A stretch of DNA of 36,019 bases from a virus, in IMG/VR virus record IMGVR_UViG_3300046654_000024, positions 1 through 36,019 of that record. One strand, given 5' to 3'. Every line of letters begins with the position of its first letter. Position 1 is the first letter of the stretch. The notes under the pieces are model-generated. The model did no database searches and had not been told where the DNA came from. It saw only the letters and a list, made by a program, of their open reading frames with translations. This document shows, piece by piece, positions 14,149 to 24,906 of the stretch. The translations under genes were made by a program, and so were the position numbers.

Positions 14149-14773
14149 CCACACCTACAAACAGATCTCAGCGCCCGGCCACCCGTTGATCTCCCCTACC
14201 GCTAGACAGGTCATCCATCTACACCGTGCCGTGCTGTACGACAAGATCGGTCCTGGACCTCATCCGTGCCACTGGTGCGGGGAGAGCGTTAACTGGGCGA
14301 TCACTACGCTAGACACCCCAGATAGATTCAAGGGTGTCCTGGTCGTTGATCACCTGGACAACACCGACTCCAATAATGACCCGTCCAACCTTGCCCCTTC
14401 ATGTCACTCGTGCAACATCCACCGCACTGGGAATGATCGATTCTCCGCAATCACCTACTTGGTGGCGTATGGATGCCGACACGCGGCTGTAGAATTAGTA
14501 TGCACGATATGCGCTACCCCGTTCCTGGCAACCCATAGCCAGATTTCCAGGCACGATAACGGAGGGAAATACTGCTCACTCACCTGTCGTGACATCGGTA
14601 GATTCAGGGCGTCACGAGAACATCGGTCTTGCCTGCAATGCGGCGGCGCATTCACGTCCATAAAGAAGTTATCAAAACACAAGGAGAGCCATAAGGTCGG
14701 GGTATTCTGCTGCCGATCATGCTTCCACACGCACCGCAGGGAACACCCCGAATACCACAAGAGGACTCCCTAG
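14141..14773 (+). CDS. HNH endonuclease with C-terminal zinc fingers
   Basis: 210 residues. HNH core: PCHWCGESVNW, then VVDHLDNTDSNNDPSNLAPS and CHSCNIHR (about 43-90), with the catalytic DH and the Asn of the second helix. Downstream come two Cys/His modules (VCTICATPFLATHSQISRH, CLTC-like YCSLTCRDIGRF; CLQCGGAFTSIKKLSKHKES with CCRSCFHTH) likely to read DNA. The HNH part is clearly related to that of the GIY-YIG protein at 16637-17503, on the other side of the portal gene. Its TAG overlaps the portal TAG in a shared CTAG. Confidence 0.85.
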   Translation: MANHTYKQISAPGHPLISPTARQVIHLHRAVLYDKIGPGPHPCHWCGESVNWAITTLDTPDRFKGVLVVDHLDNTDSNNDPSNLAPSCHSCNIHRTGNDRFSAITYLVAYGCRHAAVELVCTICATPFLATHSQISRHDNGGKYCSLTCRDIGRFRASREHRSCLQCGGAFTSIKKLSKHKESHKVGVFCCRSCFHTHRREHPEYHKRTP

Positions 14774-16632
14774 AGCGGCGCCCCTTGTCTTTGCGCCCGA
14801 TTCTGCCTGGGTTGCTTGCCGCCACCACCAATCCCCATCTCATGTTCTTTCTTGAGGCGCTCCATTTCGGTCTTAGCGTTAGCCGGAGCATTGATCAGTT
14901 CGTACAAACCTTCCATGCTGAGGACGCCTGCCTTATACATAGTAAACGCCTCTACTTTGGCCTGGGTCCGCGAGCTTCCGTGGCTCGATCCGGGGGCGAT
15001 CTTAAATGCGAACGAGCGCCAATGCGACTCTGGGTCTGATGAATCGGGGACCATAGTGGAGGCCCGATAATCGAAGTCCTCCCAGGTCACCCCATCGGCT
15101 CCCAGGATTCTCAACCGGCTATCCATGTCGGCGTACTGGAAGACGTTGGAAACCGTCTGCGCACCACACTGCTCCAGGCCAGCTTCGAGGTACCGGCCTT
15201 CCAGGCGGAACGGGGAACTCATGGTATCCCGCATCTGCTCGATGGCATCACCGCCGGGTGCCTGCTTCTTACGGGCCAACCCCTGGATGTCCAGGGAACC
15301 CGACCGGCGCTTCACGTCGTCCACGAGGTACTTCAGCCACTCCGCCACCTGAGAGGGCAGGGACGGCGCTGTCATTTCCTTGAACTCGTTGATGTTGGCC
15401 ACCGGGTTAAGTAGGACCTTCTGTCCAGGCTTGCCCGGCTGGAAGGCTTCCCAGACTGCTTCGGGGATGGCGCCACGCTTGGCCACCCAGGTTCCGTTGA
15501 GAGCCCGCATGACGCTCTCGTCGATCCCGGCGCCCACGGCGTTGATCGACCGACAGAGTGGGATCAGATCGTGGTATTTCGAGATCCCTCCGGGGCTCCA
15601 CACGCACGGATTCAACTGGAGCATGGCGAACGGATAGAGGCCATGCCAGAACGGCGAAGGCCCATCGTACATCACGCGATCCCCAGCGAAGACCACCAGC
15701 CGCTTGCGCGGGTAGAGCCTCGCGCCCGGCGGAACGATGTAGTGGTAGTTGTGTTCTTCCCGGCCAAGGTCCGGGTGGTGGATCCATACCGGGTGGTCAA
15801 ACTCGTTGATGGACCAATCGTCGTAGTAGATCTCCATCAGCGGGATCACTGGGAACGGAGAGTAGTTGTTCCCCTGCTGCTGGAGCGAGGCGTTGCGGAG
15901 GGACACTCGGCGCTGAAGGCGCGGGCTCAAAGCGTCCCAGGTATACTCCGGAACTCCCGCCGGGCGCTGGTACCGCTCGGTCCCCAACTGCTGGGCGATC
16001 TTGACGGACTGGCGCTCCAGGCCGATGCACTTCTCCGGGCCGAAGGAATTCTGGAAATACCCCAGGCTCTTGTACGCCTTGTAGACCACGGCGCCGGATG
16101 ACTGGAGATCCCCATTGCACTGCACCGGGATTACCTGATCCGGCCCATGAGCGCTGAACATGAACTGGTTCGGCCGTGCCACCATCTTCATGAACCCGGT
16201 ACCGAAGAGTGCGTGGTCCAACCACGTCACGATCTTCAAGTCCAGGTTCTCGGAACTCCACAGGTGACGGATGTACGAGTGCTGGACCTTGGCCTGCTCC
16301 TTGTACGCTTCCACCGAAGAGGTGATGTCAATCGACGGCCGGATGTCGGAGAGGGACGCCAGCGCCTCGCGACGTTGGTCGCTGAGGTAGTTGTCCACAA
16401 AAGCGCTGCGATACGCTGGCCTGTTAGCTCCCCACCAATCCCCTTCAAGATAGGAGATCACCCGATCGATTTCCTGAACGGATCTCCATGCTTGCATTTC
16501 GGACGAACCCTGGCGGACGAGATCTTCCTTCCAACGCTGCATGCGGGTGTCATATCCCGAGGAGTGGTCCCACGTCCCTGACTTCTCACGCTGTACTGCT
16601 GCGCGGGGAGGGAATTGTGCTAACGAAGCCAT
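14770..16632 (-). CDS. Portal protein
   Basis: 620 residues, in the size range of P22-like portals. Recognised from the overall portal pattern: a helical N-terminus with SLSDIRPSIDITSSVEAYKE, a stem/wing region LKIVTWLDHALFGTGFMKM, the typical DGPSPFWHGLYPFAMLQLNP followed by KYHDLIPLCRSINAVGAGID, and a charged, Gly-rich C-terminal tail (KKEHEMGIGGGGKQPRQNRA). Portals form the dodecameric DNA channel at one capsid vertex and dock the terminase. It is flanked on both sides by related homing nucleases. It starts 4 nt after the stop of the nuclease gene at 16637. Confidence 0.82.
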   Translation of the reverse strand: MASLAQFPPRAAVQREKSGTWDHSSGYDTRMQRWKEDLVRQGSSEMQAWRSVQEIDRVISYLEGDWWGANRPAYRSAFVDNYLSDQRREALASLSDIRPSIDITSSVEAYKEQAKVQHSYIRHLWSSENLDLKIVTWLDHALFGTGFMKMVARPNQFMFSAHGPDQVIPVQCNGDLQSSGAVVYKAYKSLGYFQNSFGPEKCIGLERQSVKIAQQLGTERYQRPAGVPEYTWDALSPRLQRRVSLRNASLQQQGNNYSPFPVIPLMEIYYDDWSINEFDHPVWIHHPDLGREEHNYHYIVPPGARLYPRKRLVVFAGDRVMYDGPSPFWHGLYPFAMLQLNPCVWSPGGISKYHDLIPLCRSINAVGAGIDESVMRALNGTWVAKRGAIPEAVWEAFQPGKPGQKVLLNPVANINEFKEMTAPSLPSQVAEWLKYLVDDVKRRSGSLDIQGLARKKQAPGGDAIEQMRDTMSSPFRLEGRYLEAGLEQCGAQTVSNVFQYADMDSRLRILGADGVTWEDFDYRASTMVPDSSDPESHWRSFAFKIAPGSSHGSSRTQAKVEAFTMYKAGVLSMEGLYELINAPANAKTEMERLKKEHEMGIGGGGKQPRQNRAQRQGAPL

Positions 16633-20161: not shown

Positions 20162-20239
20162 TGGAAGGCCGGATGGGAGTCGAACCCACATCGTCCAAAT
20201 TACGGCTACTGGGGTAGAAACCCAGACCGATACCGGCCC
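20162..20239 (-). tRNA. Atypical tRNA, likely Arg (anticodon TCT)
   Basis: A 7-bp acceptor stem (GGGCCGG/CCGGCCT, 1 wobble), T-arm GTGGG-TTCGACT-CCCAT and encoded CCA are clear. A perfect arm CTGGG-TTTCTAC-CCCAG gives anticodon TCT. It follows after only 7 nt in place of a D-arm and is then followed by a 19-nt variable region. Either a D-arm-poor tRNA or an alternative fold is present, so identity is uncertain. Confidence 0.55.
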
Positions 20240-20240
20240 A

Positions 20241-20308
20241 TGGAGGGGATGGCGGGATTCGAACCCGCTACCTGTGGAAACCCAGGGCACGGCCGCTATA
20301 CCAGCCCC
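20241..20308 (-). tRNA. Degenerate tRNA-like gene, possibly Gly (TCC)
   Basis: Acceptor GGGGCTG/CATCCCC has one C-T mismatch; T-arm GCGGG-TTCGAAT-CCCGC and encoded CCA are good, and a D-arm GTAT...GTGC can form. The anticodon arm is CCTG-GGTTTCCA-CAGG: 4 bp and an 8-nt loop. Total length is about 8 nt short. It shares CTGGGTTTCYAC with the Arg-like gene next to it, suggesting duplication and decay. It lies 1 nt from that gene. Confidence 0.45.
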
Positions 20309-20382: not shown

Positions 20383-20459
20383 TGGTCGGGGAGGGTGGAT
20401 TCGAACCACCGCTCCTCTGCTCCCAAGGCAGATGGGTTAAACCGCTTCCCTACTCCCCG
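20383..20459 (-). tRNA. tRNA-Pro (TGG)
   Basis: Acceptor CGGGGAG/CTCCCCG, anticodon arm TCTGC-CTTGGGA-GCAGA, T-arm GGTGG-TTCGAAT-CCACC, A73 and encoded CCA. The C1-G72 pair agrees with proline identity. Confidence 0.92.
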
Positions 20460-20709: not shown

Positions 20710-20910
20710 TCACCTCGTTCGGATCAAAGGTGGCCCCGACCCGGCGTACCCGAGAAGAATCGAGAGTAGCCACAAGCAAACCGCCACGATCACCACCACC
20801 CGAATGATCCTTGCGATGGCGGCATCCATCGGGATCTGCGCAACCACCCACAGCACGAGGCCCACGATGATCAGGACAATCACTATCTGCACCAAGAATG
20901 CTGGGAACAT
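20710..20910 (-). CDS. Small two-helix membrane protein, Thivi_2564-like
   Basis: 66 residues, ATG with AGGAGGAACT immediately upstream. Two hydrophobic segments (FLVQIVIVLIIVGLVLWVV and ARIIRVVVIVAVCLWLLSIL) flank QIPMDAAI, the pattern of the Thivi_2564 family of small bacterial membrane proteins of unknown function. It lies between tRNA-Ser(CGA) and tRNA-Pro, thus within the tRNA transcription unit. A role in the envelope or in lysis is speculative. Confidence 0.75.
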   Translation of the reverse strand: MFPAFLVQIVIVLIIVGLVLWVVAQIPMDAAIARIIRVVVIVAVCLWLLSILLGYAGSGPPLIRTR

Positions 20911-20978: not shown

Positions 20979-21068
20979 TGGAGGAGAGGGTGGGATTTGA
21001 ACCCACGGACCCCGAAGGGCCTGCGGTTTTCGGGACCGCCGCCTTAAACCGGGCTCGGCCACCTCTCC
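20979..21068 (-). tRNA. tRNA-Ser (CGA) with C at position 33
   Basis: Acceptor GGAGAGG/CCTCTCC, long variable arm (GGCCC-TTCG-GGGTCC type) and T-arm GTGGG-TTCAAAT-CCCAC. Anticodon arm GCGGT-CCCGAAA-ACCGC gives CGA, but the universal U33 is C. Discriminator is T rather than the usual G. Confidence 0.82.
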
Positions 21069-21071
21069 TCA

Positions 21072-21144
21072 TGGAGCACCGCCTCGGAATTGAACCGAGT
21101 TCTACCGGGTTGCAGCCGGTGCGCTCTCCGTTTGCTTGCGGTGC
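21072..21144 (-). tRNA. tRNA-Cys (GCA), overlapped by the GGQ gene
   Basis: Acceptor GCACCGC/GCGGTGC, anticodon arm ACCGG-CTGCAAC-CCGGT, T-arm CTCGG-TTCAATT-CCGAG, discriminator T73 (a cysteine identity element) and encoded CCA. The D-stem is short and position 8 is A. Its first 43 nt are also the last 14 codons and stop of the gene at 21102-21566. Confidence 0.85.
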
Positions 21145-21566
21145 TGAACTAAATCCGTGATCAACTTTTCCAAACGCCCATCCATGATCGGTGCCAGCGG
21201 GTACTGCTTGTCCAGCCGCTCGTCGGTCACCCGCTGTTCAGGGAAGTGGTATGTCCTGATCCGGCCTTCTCCAAACGCTGCTTGGCGCCGGACATTCTCT
21301 TCCGGCTCGCCGACCTTCCCCATTCTCCTGGCGCATTCAAGTTTGTGCCAGTCCTTGAACTGCTTCGTCGCAACCATCCGGAGGAACGCTGTCCGCTTGT
21401 TCGTGGTTTGGCTCCGCTCGTCGGCGGAGTACCCGACCGCCCCGCTCGGCGGGTGCGTCATGCGGATCGCCGTGTGGCTTCGGTTGGCGTGTTGGCCGCC
21501 CTTGCCACCGGACGTCAGGTCCTCGATCTTGAAATCCTTCGCCGTCAATGAAAACAGAAGCGTCAT
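21102..21566 (-). CDS. GGQ-domain peptide chain release/rescue factor
   Basis: 154 residues from the ATG at 21566 (AGGAGG 4 nt upstream). It has the class I release-factor GGQ catalytic motif in SGGKGGQHANRSHTAIRM (about 18-35), then SADERSQTTNKRTAFLRM, as in RF domain 3 and ArfB/YaeJ. The codon-recognition domain of RF1/RF2 (PxT or SPF) is absent. Such proteins hydrolyse peptidyl-tRNA in the ribosome, mostly to rescue stalled ones. The C-terminus is basic. Remarkably, its last 43 nt, including the TAG, are the 5' half of tRNA-Cys on the same strand, so tRNA maturation would cut off the stop codon. It lies in the tRNA operon between tRNA-Trp and tRNA-Cys. Confidence 0.85.
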   Translation of the reverse strand: MTLLFSLTAKDFKIEDLTSGGKGGQHANRSHTAIRMTHPPSGAVGYSADERSQTTNKRTAFLRMVATKQFKDWHKLECARRMGKVGEPEENVRRQAAFGEGRIRTYHFPEQRVTDERLDKQYPLAPIMDGRLEKLITDLVQHRKQTESAPAATR

Positions 21567-21583
21567 GAACCCTCCTGAAACTT

Positions 21584-21658
21584 TGGCACTCTCGGCCCGA
21601 TTCGAACAGGCGTCATCCGGGTTGGAGCCGGAGGTCCTAGCCACTGAACGACGAGAGC
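21584..21658 (-). tRNA. tRNA-Trp (CCA)
   Basis: Acceptor GCTCTCG/CGAGAGT, D-stem GTTC/GGAC, anticodon arm TCCGG-CTCCAAC-CCGGA, T-arm GCCTG-TTCGAAT-CGGGC, G73 as in Trp, encoded CCA. It lies 17 nt upstream of the GGQ gene start. Confidence 0.92.
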
Positions 21659-21659
21659 A

Positions 21660-21743
21660 TGGTCCGCCCTGCTGGATTCGAACCAGCAACGCCCGAAGGC
21701 CACCGATTTTGAGCCGGCTGCTTTACCGTTTTGCTAAGGGCGG
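21660..21743 (-). tRNA. tRNA-Leu (CAA)
   Basis: Acceptor CCGCCCT/AGGGCGG, anticodon arm GCCGG-CTCAAAA-TCGGT (CAA, reads TTG), long variable arm with GGCC-TTCG-GGC, T-arm GCTGG-TTCGAAT-CCAGC, A73, encoded CCA. One nucleotide from tRNA-Trp. Confidence 0.9.
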
Positions 21744-21749
21744 AAAACT

Positions 21750-21834
21750 TGGTACCGGGGGAGGGACTCCCACCCTCACGTCCTAAGACAGTAGTTCCTA
21801 AGACTACCGCGTCTAGTAATTCCGCCACCCCGGC
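21750..21834 (-). tRNA. tRNA-Leu (TAG) with non-canonical T-loop
   Basis: Acceptor GCCGGGG/CCCCGGT, D-arm GCGGAATTACTAGACGC, anticodon arm GTAGT-CTTAGGA-ACTAC (TAG, reads CTA), long variable arm, A73, encoded CCA. The T-arm is GAGGG-TGGGAGT-CCCTC: the loop lacks the near-universal T55 and C56. Confidence 0.85.
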
Positions 21835-21841
21835 ATAAACT

Positions 21842-21931
21842 TGGTGGACGCGGATGGATTTGAACCACCGTGGCCCCCGAAGAGACAACAGGTTTACAGC
21901 CTGTCCGTTTCAACCGCTCACGCACGCGTCC
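21842..21931 (-). tRNA. tRNA-Tyr (GTA)
   Basis: Acceptor GGACGCG/CGCGTCC, anticodon arm ACAGG-CTGTAAA-CCTGT, long variable arm as in bacterial tRNA-Tyr, T-arm GGTGG-TTCAAAT-CCATC, A73, encoded CCA. Confidence 0.92.
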
Positions 21932-21954
21932 AATTCAGATGTCAAAGAACTTGA

Positions 21955-22044
21955 TGGCGGAAGGTGAGGGATTTGAACCCACGGTGGCCGAGGCCACAAC
22001 AGATTAGCAATCTGCCGCAATAAGCCGGACTCTGCCAACCTTCC
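21955..22044 (-). tRNA. tRNA-Ser (GCT)
   Basis: Acceptor GGAAGGT/ACCTTCC, anticodon arm GCAGA-TTGCTAA-TCTGT (GCT, reads AGC/AGT), long variable arm GTGGCC-TCG-GGCCAC, T-loop TTCAAAT, G73, encoded CCA. First tRNA after the promoter at 22150-22178. One T-stem mismatch. Confidence 0.9.
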
Positions 22045-22178: not shown

Positions 22179-22432
22179 GAGGATTTCTTCTTATCGTCTC
22201 GCGCCTGCTCTACCATGGCCTGCGCTCGTCCCTCGACGTTGCCCTGGCTCCTGGCCGCTTCCTTGGTGGCCGCCAGCAATTCATCCATCCGACTGTTGAT
22301 CTGAAGGTGAACCGCGTCGATCTTCCTGCTGAGGATGATCCCCACGAAAGACAGGACCGCCGCAAAGATGGCCGGGGCTCCCGCCAGAATCACCAACCAC
22401 ACCGTGAACTGCTGCGCTGGAATCATATTCAT
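22175..22432 (-). CDS. Small membrane protein with coiled-coil tail
   Basis: 85 residues from the ATG at 22432, which overlaps the terminase stop as ATGA. One membrane-spanning segment, FTVWLVILAGAPAIFAAVLS, continuing to FVGIILSRK, is followed by a helical, charged tail (VHLQINSRMDELLAATKEAA). Similar small proteins occur beside terminase or lysis genes in phages; holin or spanin function is a guess. Confidence 0.7.
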   Translation of the reverse strand: MNMIPAQQFTVWLVILAGAPAIFAAVLSFVGIILSRKIDAVHLQINSRMDELLAATKEAARSQGNVEGRAQAMVEQARDDKKKSS

Positions 22433-24906
22433 CGTCCCCAATAATTCTCGCGGCTCTCTCCTGGGTCAGGCCGGCCGTTGCCCCGGAGACCTTCCGGGTG
22501 GGTGTGCTGGATCACGCGCGAGTCATATCCCTTGTACGGCGCTATCGACTCGCCTTTCTCCCCAGTCTTAACCCCAAGCAGGGTATCAAGGTCCAACGTG
22601 GCCCGTGGGTCCGGAGCCTCCAGCGGGATACCAACCAGGAAGATGCTACCACAGTCTTCCTTCGGGCACCGGTACTCCGTGTCCGGCCGCGCCGCTCCCC
22701 ACTCACAGCCGCATTTCTTGCAGATCATTTTGTAGCGCGGCGGTTCGACCTCTGATATAGCTAAAGGCGGGTTGATCCTCCCACTGTCGTCGGCGGCCCA
22801 TTCGTGGGCACAGTACAGTGCGATCAACACAGAAAGGAGTTCGTCATCGTGGCAGCCCTTGGCGTGCTCGGCCTTCTTGTCGTCCTCGTCGTCCTTCTGG
22901 AAGGTCTGACTTTCCTCCACGAAGTTCGGCGAGCGCACGATGAACCACCCGGCCTTGATCCACTTCCGTCCCTGTTGCCACAGCTTCGGCTTCGTGTTCG
23001 GCTGAGTCATCCAGTGGAACTTGTTGGACATCGGGTCCTTCGAGTCCAGATGCTTCCACCGGAAAAGATTCGGGTACTGATACTGGCCACGGACGGCATC
23101 GGCCACCGACTTATAGAAGTTGTACTCGATGCACATGAGGGCTTCGTTGTACATCCGGCCGATCGTGTTGGCGAAGAATGCCAGATCCAGCGGCTCAACG
23201 TCGTTCGATCTCCAAATAGCCACTTGCTCATCCGGAGATCCAGCCTTACCCAGTTTGTTCACCGCGATGACGGAGTAGTCCTCACCGATTCCTTCAGCGA
23301 TATCCACCCCAACCGAATACTCCCGGCCTGGGATCGGAGCTTCCCACTGGATGAAGGTGGACTCGTCCTCGCAGAGTTGCGACGTCCTGTGGTCTGCTGG
23401 ACAACCATCCACAAAGCATCCAATTTTCAGTTGCTTGCTGCCATCACGGCCGCGATCAAACTTCACCCCGTGGAAGCGCCCCTTGGAGTCGATGAACCCC
23501 ACCTTGACGTCCGGGCTCGTCAGGGGGTTCCTCACCGTGAGGGCCATCGCGTCCTGGCACGCCTCGTCGAACACGGCATATCCGGAAAGTTGCCACCCGT
23601 CTTCCGCCGTACAGGCAGTTTCCTGGTGGTGTAACTTCAATGATTCCTTATCTTTAGCCTCTGCGTTCTTCCGCTTGAGTTCCTTCCATCGGAGTTGTTC
23701 GTCGGAAAGACACGCCGGATTCAGAGTTCCTTTATCGCAGGCCGGGCAGATCATTCCGATCCGACTCTCTCCGCCGAACTTAGCCACGTGATACTGAGCG
23801 CACGCATCACACTTAACCCACTCGCTCATGACGCGCTCTCGCAACATCCGTTCTGGCTTGTCAACGTGCCACCCTTGCGGCGGCGCCACGACACGGCTAC
23901 GCTCCAGAAAGAACGGCAGGAACAACGGATACCACTCAGCATCCTCTCCCATCTTGATATTGGCTTTCCACAGCATGTGTGAGTAGCTTCCGGAGCCTCG
24001 TCCGGTGGACTCCAAGAACCCAAACGAGTTGGGATCGTTATCGTGGATGGAGTGGAGCAAATCGCCTTCGATGATCTCCTTGGCCTTCGCCTGTTGGAAG
24101 TCTGAATACTCCGAGACGTGTGCGGCCGACAGCCGCTTACCTTGCCCGACGCCGGACAACTGGTTGGCGTGCTGCACGTAGATGTGCGAGTTCATGCCTG
24201 GGTTCCGCTGGCGTTGTTCACGGTCCTTGCGGTCGAAGTGAAGTCCACCTTTCACCTCCAGAGTGGCTGCTTCCGGCTTCAGCCACCACGGCATTTTATC
24301 GTAAAAATGCAACATCAGACCGTACAGGTAGGAGCTTTGTTCTTCATCCACCGAGACCACGATGGCCTCGGTGTTTCGAAAGAACATCGTCCGCCAAGCT
24401 ATCATGGCCTCGATGAGGAGCGAGCAACCCAATTGGCGCCCTTTCAAGATCATGATCTTCTGGGCGCGTGACTTCTTTTTCAACTCCATCCATTTCTGGA
24501 GCACGAGCCACTGGGACTCCCACAGGGTGAACAGTTGGTCGTGGCCTTGGTCATTCGTGATCCAGAAGAATTGGCGGGCCGCGTAGATGAAGTCTCGGCG
24601 GCAGAACCGGGCTTGTTCCAGGACAGAGTTGCGCTCGTCTTTATTGAGGGTTTGGAACCTCTCATCCGGTCCCATCCGGTCCCACTCACCCTCTCGGATG
24701 TACTTGTCCGCATGTGCGTCCAGGTGGTCCACGAGAAGCTGAACCCCCCGATCTCTCCCCTTGGGAATGACGAGGTTGCCGATCGATACGGTGGCGGCTG
24801 ACGGAGGTAGTTTCTTGGCCTGGGGGATGATTATGGCCGGCGGAATGATGATCTGCGGAGGCGGTGGCTGAATCAGGCAAGCGGCCGGATCGAATAGGCT
24901 ACCCAT
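22429..24906 (-). CDS. terL: Terminase large subunit (TerL)
   Basis: 825 residues. The packaging ATPase has Walker A ILKGRQLGCS (about 154-162), Walker B-like AAHVSEYSDF (about 261-270) and a coupling motif near FLESTGRGSGSY (298-308). The nuclease domain shows VGVDIAEGIGEDYSV (about 532-546), CIEYNFY (592-598) and the GCHDDELL metal motif (684-691). Unusual extras are a zinc-ribbon-like insert between the domains (CDAC at 366-369, CPAC at 387-390) and a C-terminal one (CKKCGC near 729-734, CPKEDC near 747-752), plus a Pro-rich N-terminus. TerL translocates and cuts DNA at the portal. It starts 3 nt after the candidate small subunit. Confidence 0.92.
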   Translation of the reverse strand: MGSLFDPAACLIQPPPPQIIIPPAIIIPQAKKLPPSAATVSIGNLVIPKGRDRGVQLLVDHLDAHADKYIREGEWDRMGPDERFQTLNKDERNSVLEQARFCRRDFIYAARQFFWITNDQGHDQLFTLWESQWLVLQKWMELKKKSRAQKIMILKGRQLGCSLLIEAMIAWRTMFFRNTEAIVVSVDEEQSSYLYGLMLHFYDKMPWWLKPEAATLEVKGGLHFDRKDREQRQRNPGMNSHIYVQHANQLSGVGQGKRLSAAHVSEYSDFQQAKAKEIIEGDLLHSIHDNDPNSFGFLESTGRGSGSYSHMLWKANIKMGEDAEWYPLFLPFFLERSRVVAPPQGWHVDKPERMLRERVMSEWVKCDACAQYHVAKFGGESRIGMICPACDKGTLNPACLSDEQLRWKELKRKNAEAKDKESLKLHHQETACTAEDGWQLSGYAVFDEACQDAMALTVRNPLTSPDVKVGFIDSKGRFHGVKFDRGRDGSKQLKIGCFVDGCPADHRTSQLCEDESTFIQWEAPIPGREYSVGVDIAEGIGEDYSVIAVNKLGKAGSPDEQVAIWRSNDVEPLDLAFFANTIGRMYNEALMCIEYNFYKSVADAVRGQYQYPNLFRWKHLDSKDPMSNKFHWMTQPNTKPKLWQQGRKWIKAGWFIVRSPNFVEESQTFQKDDEDDKKAEHAKGCHDDELLSVLIALYCAHEWAADDSGRINPPLAISEVEPPRYKMICKKCGCEWGAARPDTEYRCPKEDCGSIFLVGIPLEAPDPRATLDLDTLLGVKTGEKGESIAPYKGYDSRVIQHTHPEGLRGNGRPDPGESRENYWGR

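What the first reader, a model, noticed from the sequence alone, without database searches (positions are those of the whole stretch)
21072..21566. GGQ rescue-factor gene whose stop codon lies inside tRNA-Cys
The 154-residue GGQ protein gene and tRNA-Cys lie on the same strand and share 43 nt; the TAG is tRNA nucleotides 41-43. RNase P cleavage at the tRNA 5' end (21144) would remove the last 14 codons and the stop, leaving a non-stop mRNA after Val-Cys-less codons for a protein that itself looks like a non-stop rescue factor. This recalls E. coli ArfA, made from a non-stop mRNA and kept low by tmRNA. The overlap is read directly; the feedback loop is an inference. A trade-off is also possible: each transcript yields either tRNA-Cys or a full-length factor.
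Basis: partly seen in the sequence, partly recalled or inferred. Interest (0 to 1): 0.82.

Follow-up and report, generated by a model that had tools for sequence, protein, structure and literature searches.

The report
Phage release-factor gene overlapping a tRNA
An uncultured phage carries a small ribosome-release protein gene packed into a row of tRNA genes, and its last codons really do run into the next tRNA, but other genes in such phage tRNA rows do the same about as often, so the overlap looks like tight packing and not a special feedback switch.

Summary
A 154-codon RF-1-domain (GGQ) gene (21566-21102, minus) shares 43 nt with a downstream same-strand tRNA-Cys(GCA) (21144-21072). The TAG is tRNA nt 41-43, and the tRNA 5' end falls in codon 141. 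Two other contigs of the same virus carry the identical junction. The protein is RF1 domain 3 plus an RF1-like C-terminus, without the codon-reading domains.

The proposed feedback loop is not supported. In related viral tRNA arrays, 4/19 GGQ genes and 13/50 other ORFs end inside the next tRNA. The others include recognisable HNH endonuclease, phosphatase and RNase H-like genes with 43-53 nt overlaps. In one mycobacterial lineage (72-74% identical proteins) one member has a GGQ/tRNA-Glu overlap, while six have the stop upstream. A 13-codon open run has probability about 0.66 by chance.

What recurs is placement: GGQ genes lie within 1.5 kb of same-strand tRNAs in 7/17 contigs (1.3 expected), sometimes next to RtcB RNA ligase. 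I read this as a phage translation-rescue gene in a compact accessory tRNA island. Processing tRNA-Cys would destroy that transcript's stop codon, probably as a passive cost. Precedents are published: selB/tRNA-Sec overlaps, and RF-1 genes in mycobacterial tRNA arrays.

The parts
21102..21566 (-). RF-1-domain (GGQ) gene, 154 codons, ATG at 21566, TAG at 21104-21102
   Evidence: PF00472; residues 8-146 align with E. coli RF1 about 218-351 of 360
21072..21144 (-). tRNA-Cys (GCA) with encoded CCA; degenerate D-domain, A at position 8
21102..21144 (-). 43-nt overlap: codon 141 third base to the stop codon = tRNA nt 1-43
   Evidence: sequence
21571..21576 (-). Shine-Dalgarno-like AGGAGG, 4 nt before the ATG, inside the 17-nt spacer after tRNA-Trp
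   Evidence: read directly
21584..21658 (-). tRNA-Trp (CCA), immediately upstream of the GGQ gene
21660..22044 (-). tRNA-Leu(CAA), tRNA-Leu(TAG), tRNA-Tyr(GTA), tRNA-Ser(GCT): upstream part of the array
20979..21068 (-). tRNA-Ser (CGA), 3 nt after the tRNA-Cys CCA
20383..20459 (-). tRNA-Pro (TGG)
20243..20308 (-). tRNA-like gene with reduced D-domain and an apparent 8-nt anticodon loop
   Evidence: 26.7 bits; missed by ARAGORN
20164..20240 (-). tRNA-like gene, apparent anticodon TCT, only 7 nt where the D-arm should be, long variable region
   Evidence: (33.1 bits in the same virus)

Best explanation
This is a phage-encoded, stop-codon-independent peptide-release (ribosome-rescue type) protein, a free-standing RF1 catalytic domain, whose gene sits inside a compact accessory tRNA island between terminase and portal genes. 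Its 3' end overlaps tRNA-Cys because array genes are packed end to end and the tRNA supplies the stop codon; it is not a dedicated regulatory device. Shown: the overlap, the protein family, the island's absence at the same place in a relative, and that unrelated array genes overlap tRNAs equally often. Inferred: that RNase P cuts at 21144, so each transcript yields either mature tRNA-Cys or an mRNA with its stop; that truncated messages are cleared by host trans-translation as a passive cost; and that the factor releases ribosomes stalled during infection, for example after damage to tRNA or rRNA.
For: RF-1 domain and alignment to RF1 domain 3 plus C-terminus. Predicted model: confident core (pLDDT over 90 in most of residues 1-20 and 31-80), last helix 131-148, so the tRNA-encoded residues 141-154 are only the end of the last helix. 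3' overlap 4/19 GGQ against 13/50 other ORFs, at least 25 nt 2/19 against 5/50, with homology support for several of the others. Overlapping and non-overlapping versions within one lineage. The relative L010 has 506 nt between terminase and the next shared region where the window has 3.9 kb and has no tRNA. GGQ genes near same-strand tRNAs 7/17 against 1.28 expected. GGQ gene followed by tRNA-Glu and an RtcB RNA ligase in M. abscessus prophage prophiGD54-2, and RtcB beside GGQ in two further contigs.
Against: No expression or processing data exist. The control ORFs are mechanical (70 aa or more) and some may not be genes. The rescue function is by homology only; this virus's 94.6-kb contig shows no RtcB and no tmRNA. 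No close homologue exists to test whether the junction is conserved.
Confidence: 0.68

Rival explanations
1. ArfA-like feedback: tRNA-Cys processing makes the factor's mRNA non-stop; tmRNA normally tags the product, and when rescue capacity is short untagged truncated factor accumulates and acts.
For: Anatomy permits it: the cut falls in codon 141 and the GGQ core lies well upstream, residues 141-154 being the end of the last helix. arfA mRNA does lack a stop codon and is repressed by trans-translation (PMC10107115).
Against: The arrangement is not special to GGQ genes, is absent from most array-embedded GGQ relatives, and is gained or lost within one lineage.
Confidence: 0.07
2. Selected trade-off, as proposed for selB/tRNA-Sec: mature tRNA-Cys and factor are alternative products of one transcript, which holds their ratio.
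For: A second translation-factor gene with its stop in the middle of a tRNA (tRNA nt 46-48 in Dyella and Luteibacter selB/selC; PMC8124441) shows the geometry recurs for translation factors. Four GGQ lineages overlap four different tRNAs.
Against: Different tRNAs and different overlap lengths (43, 27, 15, 10 nt) argue against one conserved device; other array genes overlap equally often. Unlike selB/selC there is no obvious functional pairing of this factor with tRNA-Cys.
Confidence: 0.12
3. tRNA-Cys is decaying and no longer processed, so the overlap has no consequence.
For: D-stem mismatches, A instead of U at position 8, missed by ARAGORN. In this reading frame a U at position 8 (U8-A9-G10) would be a TAG stop.
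Against: All 17 acceptor, anticodon and T-stem pairs, U73, GCA and CCA are intact. Roughly a tenth of the tRNAs in such phage arrays also lack U8 (42 of 289 before allowing for end-register errors), and two further tRNA-like genes of this array have reduced D-domains, so this may be a style of phage tRNA and not decay.
Confidence: 0.13

Closest known systems
selB/selC (tRNA-Sec) overlapping genes, PMC8124441
   Same: A translation-factor gene runs into a same-strand tRNA; in Dyella and Luteibacter the stop codon lies mid-tRNA (nt 46-48, here 41-43). The author proposed that tRNA processing gives a non-stop mRNA.
   Different: There the tRNA is the factor's own substrate and the overlap is shared by many species; here it is tRNA-Cys, in one virus, within a multi-tRNA array.
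RF-1-domain gene of mycobacterial and cluster M phage tRNA arrays (PMC5966550; prophiGD54-2)
   Same: Same domain, embedded in a same-strand tRNA array, adjoining tRNAs on both sides.
   Different: Short C-terminus (112 aa), stop 6 nt before tRNA-Glu, start codon abutting tRNA-Asp, RtcB gene downstream.
PrfH of the RtcB2-PrfH module (PMC9223846)
   Same: RF1-derived GGQ factor for ribosomes that cannot terminate normally; several phage relatives also sit beside RtcB.
   Different: The PrfH model is far below its cut-off (57.4 against 166.65 bits), there is no N-terminal PrfH portion and no RtcB in this contig.
ArfA of E. coli (PMC10107115)
   Same: Rescue-related gene whose mRNA could lack a stop codon.
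   Different: ArfA has no GGQ domain and recruits RF2; its loss of the stop codon does not involve a tRNA gene (general knowledge).

Membership tests
RF-1 domain GGQ peptidyl hydrolases (PF00472) | Match above the curated cut-off with the GGQ motif | tested here: met
   66.7 bits against 35, GGQ at residues 23-25
Class I release factor RF1 (full) | N-terminal and codon-recognition domains before domain 3 | tested here: not met
   Only RF1 positions about 211-351 are present; 95.4 bits against a cut-off of 400
ArfB (YaeJ) | Family score and basic C-terminal tail | tested here: not met
   19.5 bits against 100, match limited to residues 5-37; the C-terminus aligns with RF1 instead
PrfH | PrfH family score; rtcB neighbour | tested here: not met
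   57.4 bits against 166.65; no RtcB in the 94.6-kb contig
Overlapping translation-factor/tRNA genes (selB/selC type) | Stop codon of the factor inside a same-strand tRNA | tested here: met
Overlapping translation-factor/tRNA genes (selB/selC type) | Overlap conserved among relatives of the factor | tested here: inconclusive
   Overlaps in 4/19 array GGQ genes with different tRNAs; no close relative of this protein outside the same virus
ArfA-type non-stop autoregulation | Truncated mRNA in vivo and repression by tmRNA | not testable with these tools
   Needs RNA ends and ssrA mutants

The most novel reading that the evidence does not exclude
Phage RF-1-domain genes threaded between tRNA genes form a class whose mRNAs are cut out by the tRNA-processing enzymes themselves: start codons at 0-8 nt from the upstream tRNA and stops inside or a few nt before the next one, so that supply of a ribosome-rescue factor is tied to how fast tRNAs are matured or damaged during infection. 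The window would be the case in which the cut removes the stop codon.
Probability: 0.08. Interest if true: 0.78.

Novelty: new member of a known kind. Interest (0 to 1): 0.33.

Why it matters
If the overlap were regulatory it would be a new way to couple ribosome rescue to tRNA maturation. The evidence points to a humbler message: in phage tRNA arrays protein genes routinely borrow their stop codon from the next tRNA, which gene callers and tRNA finders handle badly. The recurrent embedding of RF-1-domain genes in tRNA arrays of unrelated phages, sometimes beside the RNA ligase RtcB, suggests a phage translation-repair kit that is easy to test.

Tried and rejected
Sequencing error: rejected by two further contigs of the same virus. 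Chance tRNA-like fold: rejected by three detectors. Conserved GGQ/tRNA-Cys unit: no other locus has it; tRNA-Cys lies 106-140 nt downstream of the GGQ stop in L042, L070 and L167 without overlap. Loss of U8 as proof of selection for the coding extension: weakened, since roughly a tenth of tRNAs in these arrays lack U8. GGQ start codons abutting upstream tRNAs as a special trait: 11/19 against 11/50 (P 0.008), but many GGQ cases are one mycobacterial lineage, and about 6/14 after collapsing lineages by eye is not convincing. Phage-encoded tmRNA or RtcB in this virus: none found. Megablast of the region against named phages: no match. The terminase search gave only one usable relative. A host was not assigned. 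The Planctomycetota hits of the genome scan that I looked at proved to be full-length RF1/RF2-size proteins, not free-standing domains.

Full report
What is there. On the minus strand the window holds an array of ten tRNA-like genes between 22044 and 20164, between a terminase gene (22429-24906) and a portal gene (14770-16632). Between tRNA-Trp (3' end 21584) and tRNA-Cys (5' end 21144) lies a 154-codon gene with the GGQ motif. A 17-nt spacer after tRNA-Trp contains AGGAGG, 4 nt before the ATG (read), so initiation does not depend on the tRNA. The gene's last 14 codons (counting the split codon 141) and its TAG lie inside tRNA-Cys.

Is tRNA-Cys real? ARAGORN and the default Rfam scan miss it. 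Permissive Rfam scoring gives 36.3 bits, above the gathering score, and a model made here from 30 other phage tRNAs gives 38.6 bits. Acceptor, anticodon and T stems are perfect, with U33, anticodon GCA, U73 (a cysteine identity base, general knowledge) and CCA. The D-domain is poor and position 8 is A. In the GGQ frame the usual U8-A9-G10 would be a TAG stop, and in locus L144 the GGQ gene ends on exactly that trinucleotide. The A8 here lets the frame run on to nt 41-43. I do not take this as proof of selection, because roughly a tenth of the tRNAs in comparable arrays also lack U8.

What the protein is. It is an RF-1 domain whose residues 8-146 align with RF1 domain 3 and its C-terminus (E. 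coli RF1 about 218-351 of 360). RF1 beats RF2, PrfH and ArfB by score, all below the full-length cut-offs. Most phage relatives are 110-125 aa and lack the RTYHFPEQRVTD-type tail; this protein keeps it. The predicted model (32 sequences, mean pLDDT 81) is confident for the core; residues 131-148 form the last helix, so a cut at codon 141 would remove its second half. Foldseek finds RF1, RF2 and PrfH on ribosomes. A stop-codon-independent release or rescue role is therefore likely by homology but untested.

Same virus and relatives. Two other IMG/VR contigs carry the region, one identical, one with two distant differences. A relative with 77-80% identical terminase has no tRNA and only about 0.5 kb where the window has 3.9 kb between shared flanks, so the island is an accessory insert. 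Beyond the same virus the nearest GGQ proteins are about 50% identical, and the tree leaves this one on a long branch.

Is the overlap special? I collected 127 distinct viral GGQ loci. In 23 the gene adjoins a same-strand tRNA; on a poorly resolved tree this trait changes 15 times, at least 4 changes being forced by supported branches. Overlaps with the next tRNA are 43 nt (window, Cys), 27 (L033, Thr), 15 (L062, Glu) and 10 (L144, Arg); several others end 4-6 nt before it. As control I took every ORF of 70 aa or more between consecutive same-strand tRNAs in the same loci: 4/19 GGQ genes and 13/50 other ORFs end inside the next tRNA; for overlaps of 25 nt or more, 2/19 and 5/50. Six of ten overlapping control ORFs tested have family support, among them HNH endonucleases (43 and 47 nt), a dual-specificity phosphatase-like gene (51 nt) and an RNase H-like gene (53 nt). 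Overlap is thus a property of the arrays. In the mycobacterial lineage L062 overlaps tRNA-Glu by 15 nt, while six relatives with 72-74% identical proteins stop 6-41 nt before it.

What does recur. In 17 GGQ contigs not chosen for tRNAs, with tRNA positions as listed (a truncated list), the GGQ gene lies within 1.5 kb of a same-strand tRNA in 7, against 1.28 expected (simulated P about 1e-4; a rough estimate that ignores shared ancestry). In M. abscessus prophage prophiGD54-2 the order is tRNA-Asp, RF-1 gene starting on the next base, tRNA-Glu after 6 nt, RtcB RNA ligase. RtcB also neighbours the GGQ gene in the contigs of L062 and L060. This resembles the RtcB2-PrfH module, which protects E. 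coli from a 16S rRNA-cleaving colicin (PMC9223846). The RF-1 gene in mycobacterial tRNA arrays, and a link to ribosome rescue, were noted before (PMC5966550).

How it most likely works. Transcribed as part of the tRNA precursor, the GGQ message is translated from its own ribosome-binding site. Once tRNA-Cys folds and RNase P cuts at 21144 (inferred), that transcript loses the stop codon. Loss of some messages to trans-translation is the expected price of packing; an evolved feedback is possible but nothing found here favours it. The same logic was proposed, also without experiment, for selB/tRNA-Sec (PMC8124441).

Limits. There are no RNA data, no host, and no close homologues; the control ORFs were found mechanically, and the tRNA detector differs between the window (three methods) and the survey (ARAGORN plus a helix scanner).

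Noticed in passing
window 20164-20240 and 20243-20308 (minus): Two further tRNA-like genes missed by ARAGORN: one with only 7 nt in place of the D-arm, anticodon stem-loop for TCT and an 18-nt variable region; one with reduced D-domain and an apparent 8-nt anticodon loop.
   Followed up: partly
L021, L041, L144, L192: Several large phage tRNA arrays hold many tRNAs without U8 but with intact stems, suggesting a recurrent non-canonical D-domain style in phage tRNAs.
   Followed up: partly
L062, L065, L070, L074, L126, L192; L281:1186-1524: RF-1-domain start codons lie 0 or 1 nt after the 3' end of the upstream tRNA, so 3' processing of that tRNA would leave a leaderless message.
   Followed up: partly
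L281 (prophiGD54-2), contigs of L060 and L062: RtcB RNA ligase gene beside the phage RF-1-domain gene, resembling bacterial RtcB2-PrfH.
   Followed up: partly
L074:1272-1484, L085:888-1100: A 70-codon ORF (VNKYRLTAAG...) fits exactly between two tRNAs with no spacer on either side.
   Followed up: no
L010:3-788: The terminase gene of the relative is interrupted by what looks like an intein or homing endonuclease segment absent from the window's terminase.
   Followed up: no
window 20710-20910 (minus): Small hydrophobic ORF with its own AGGAGG; its frame stays open upstream through the whole of tRNA-Ser(CGA), showing that open frames across tRNAs arise by chance here.
   Followed up: no
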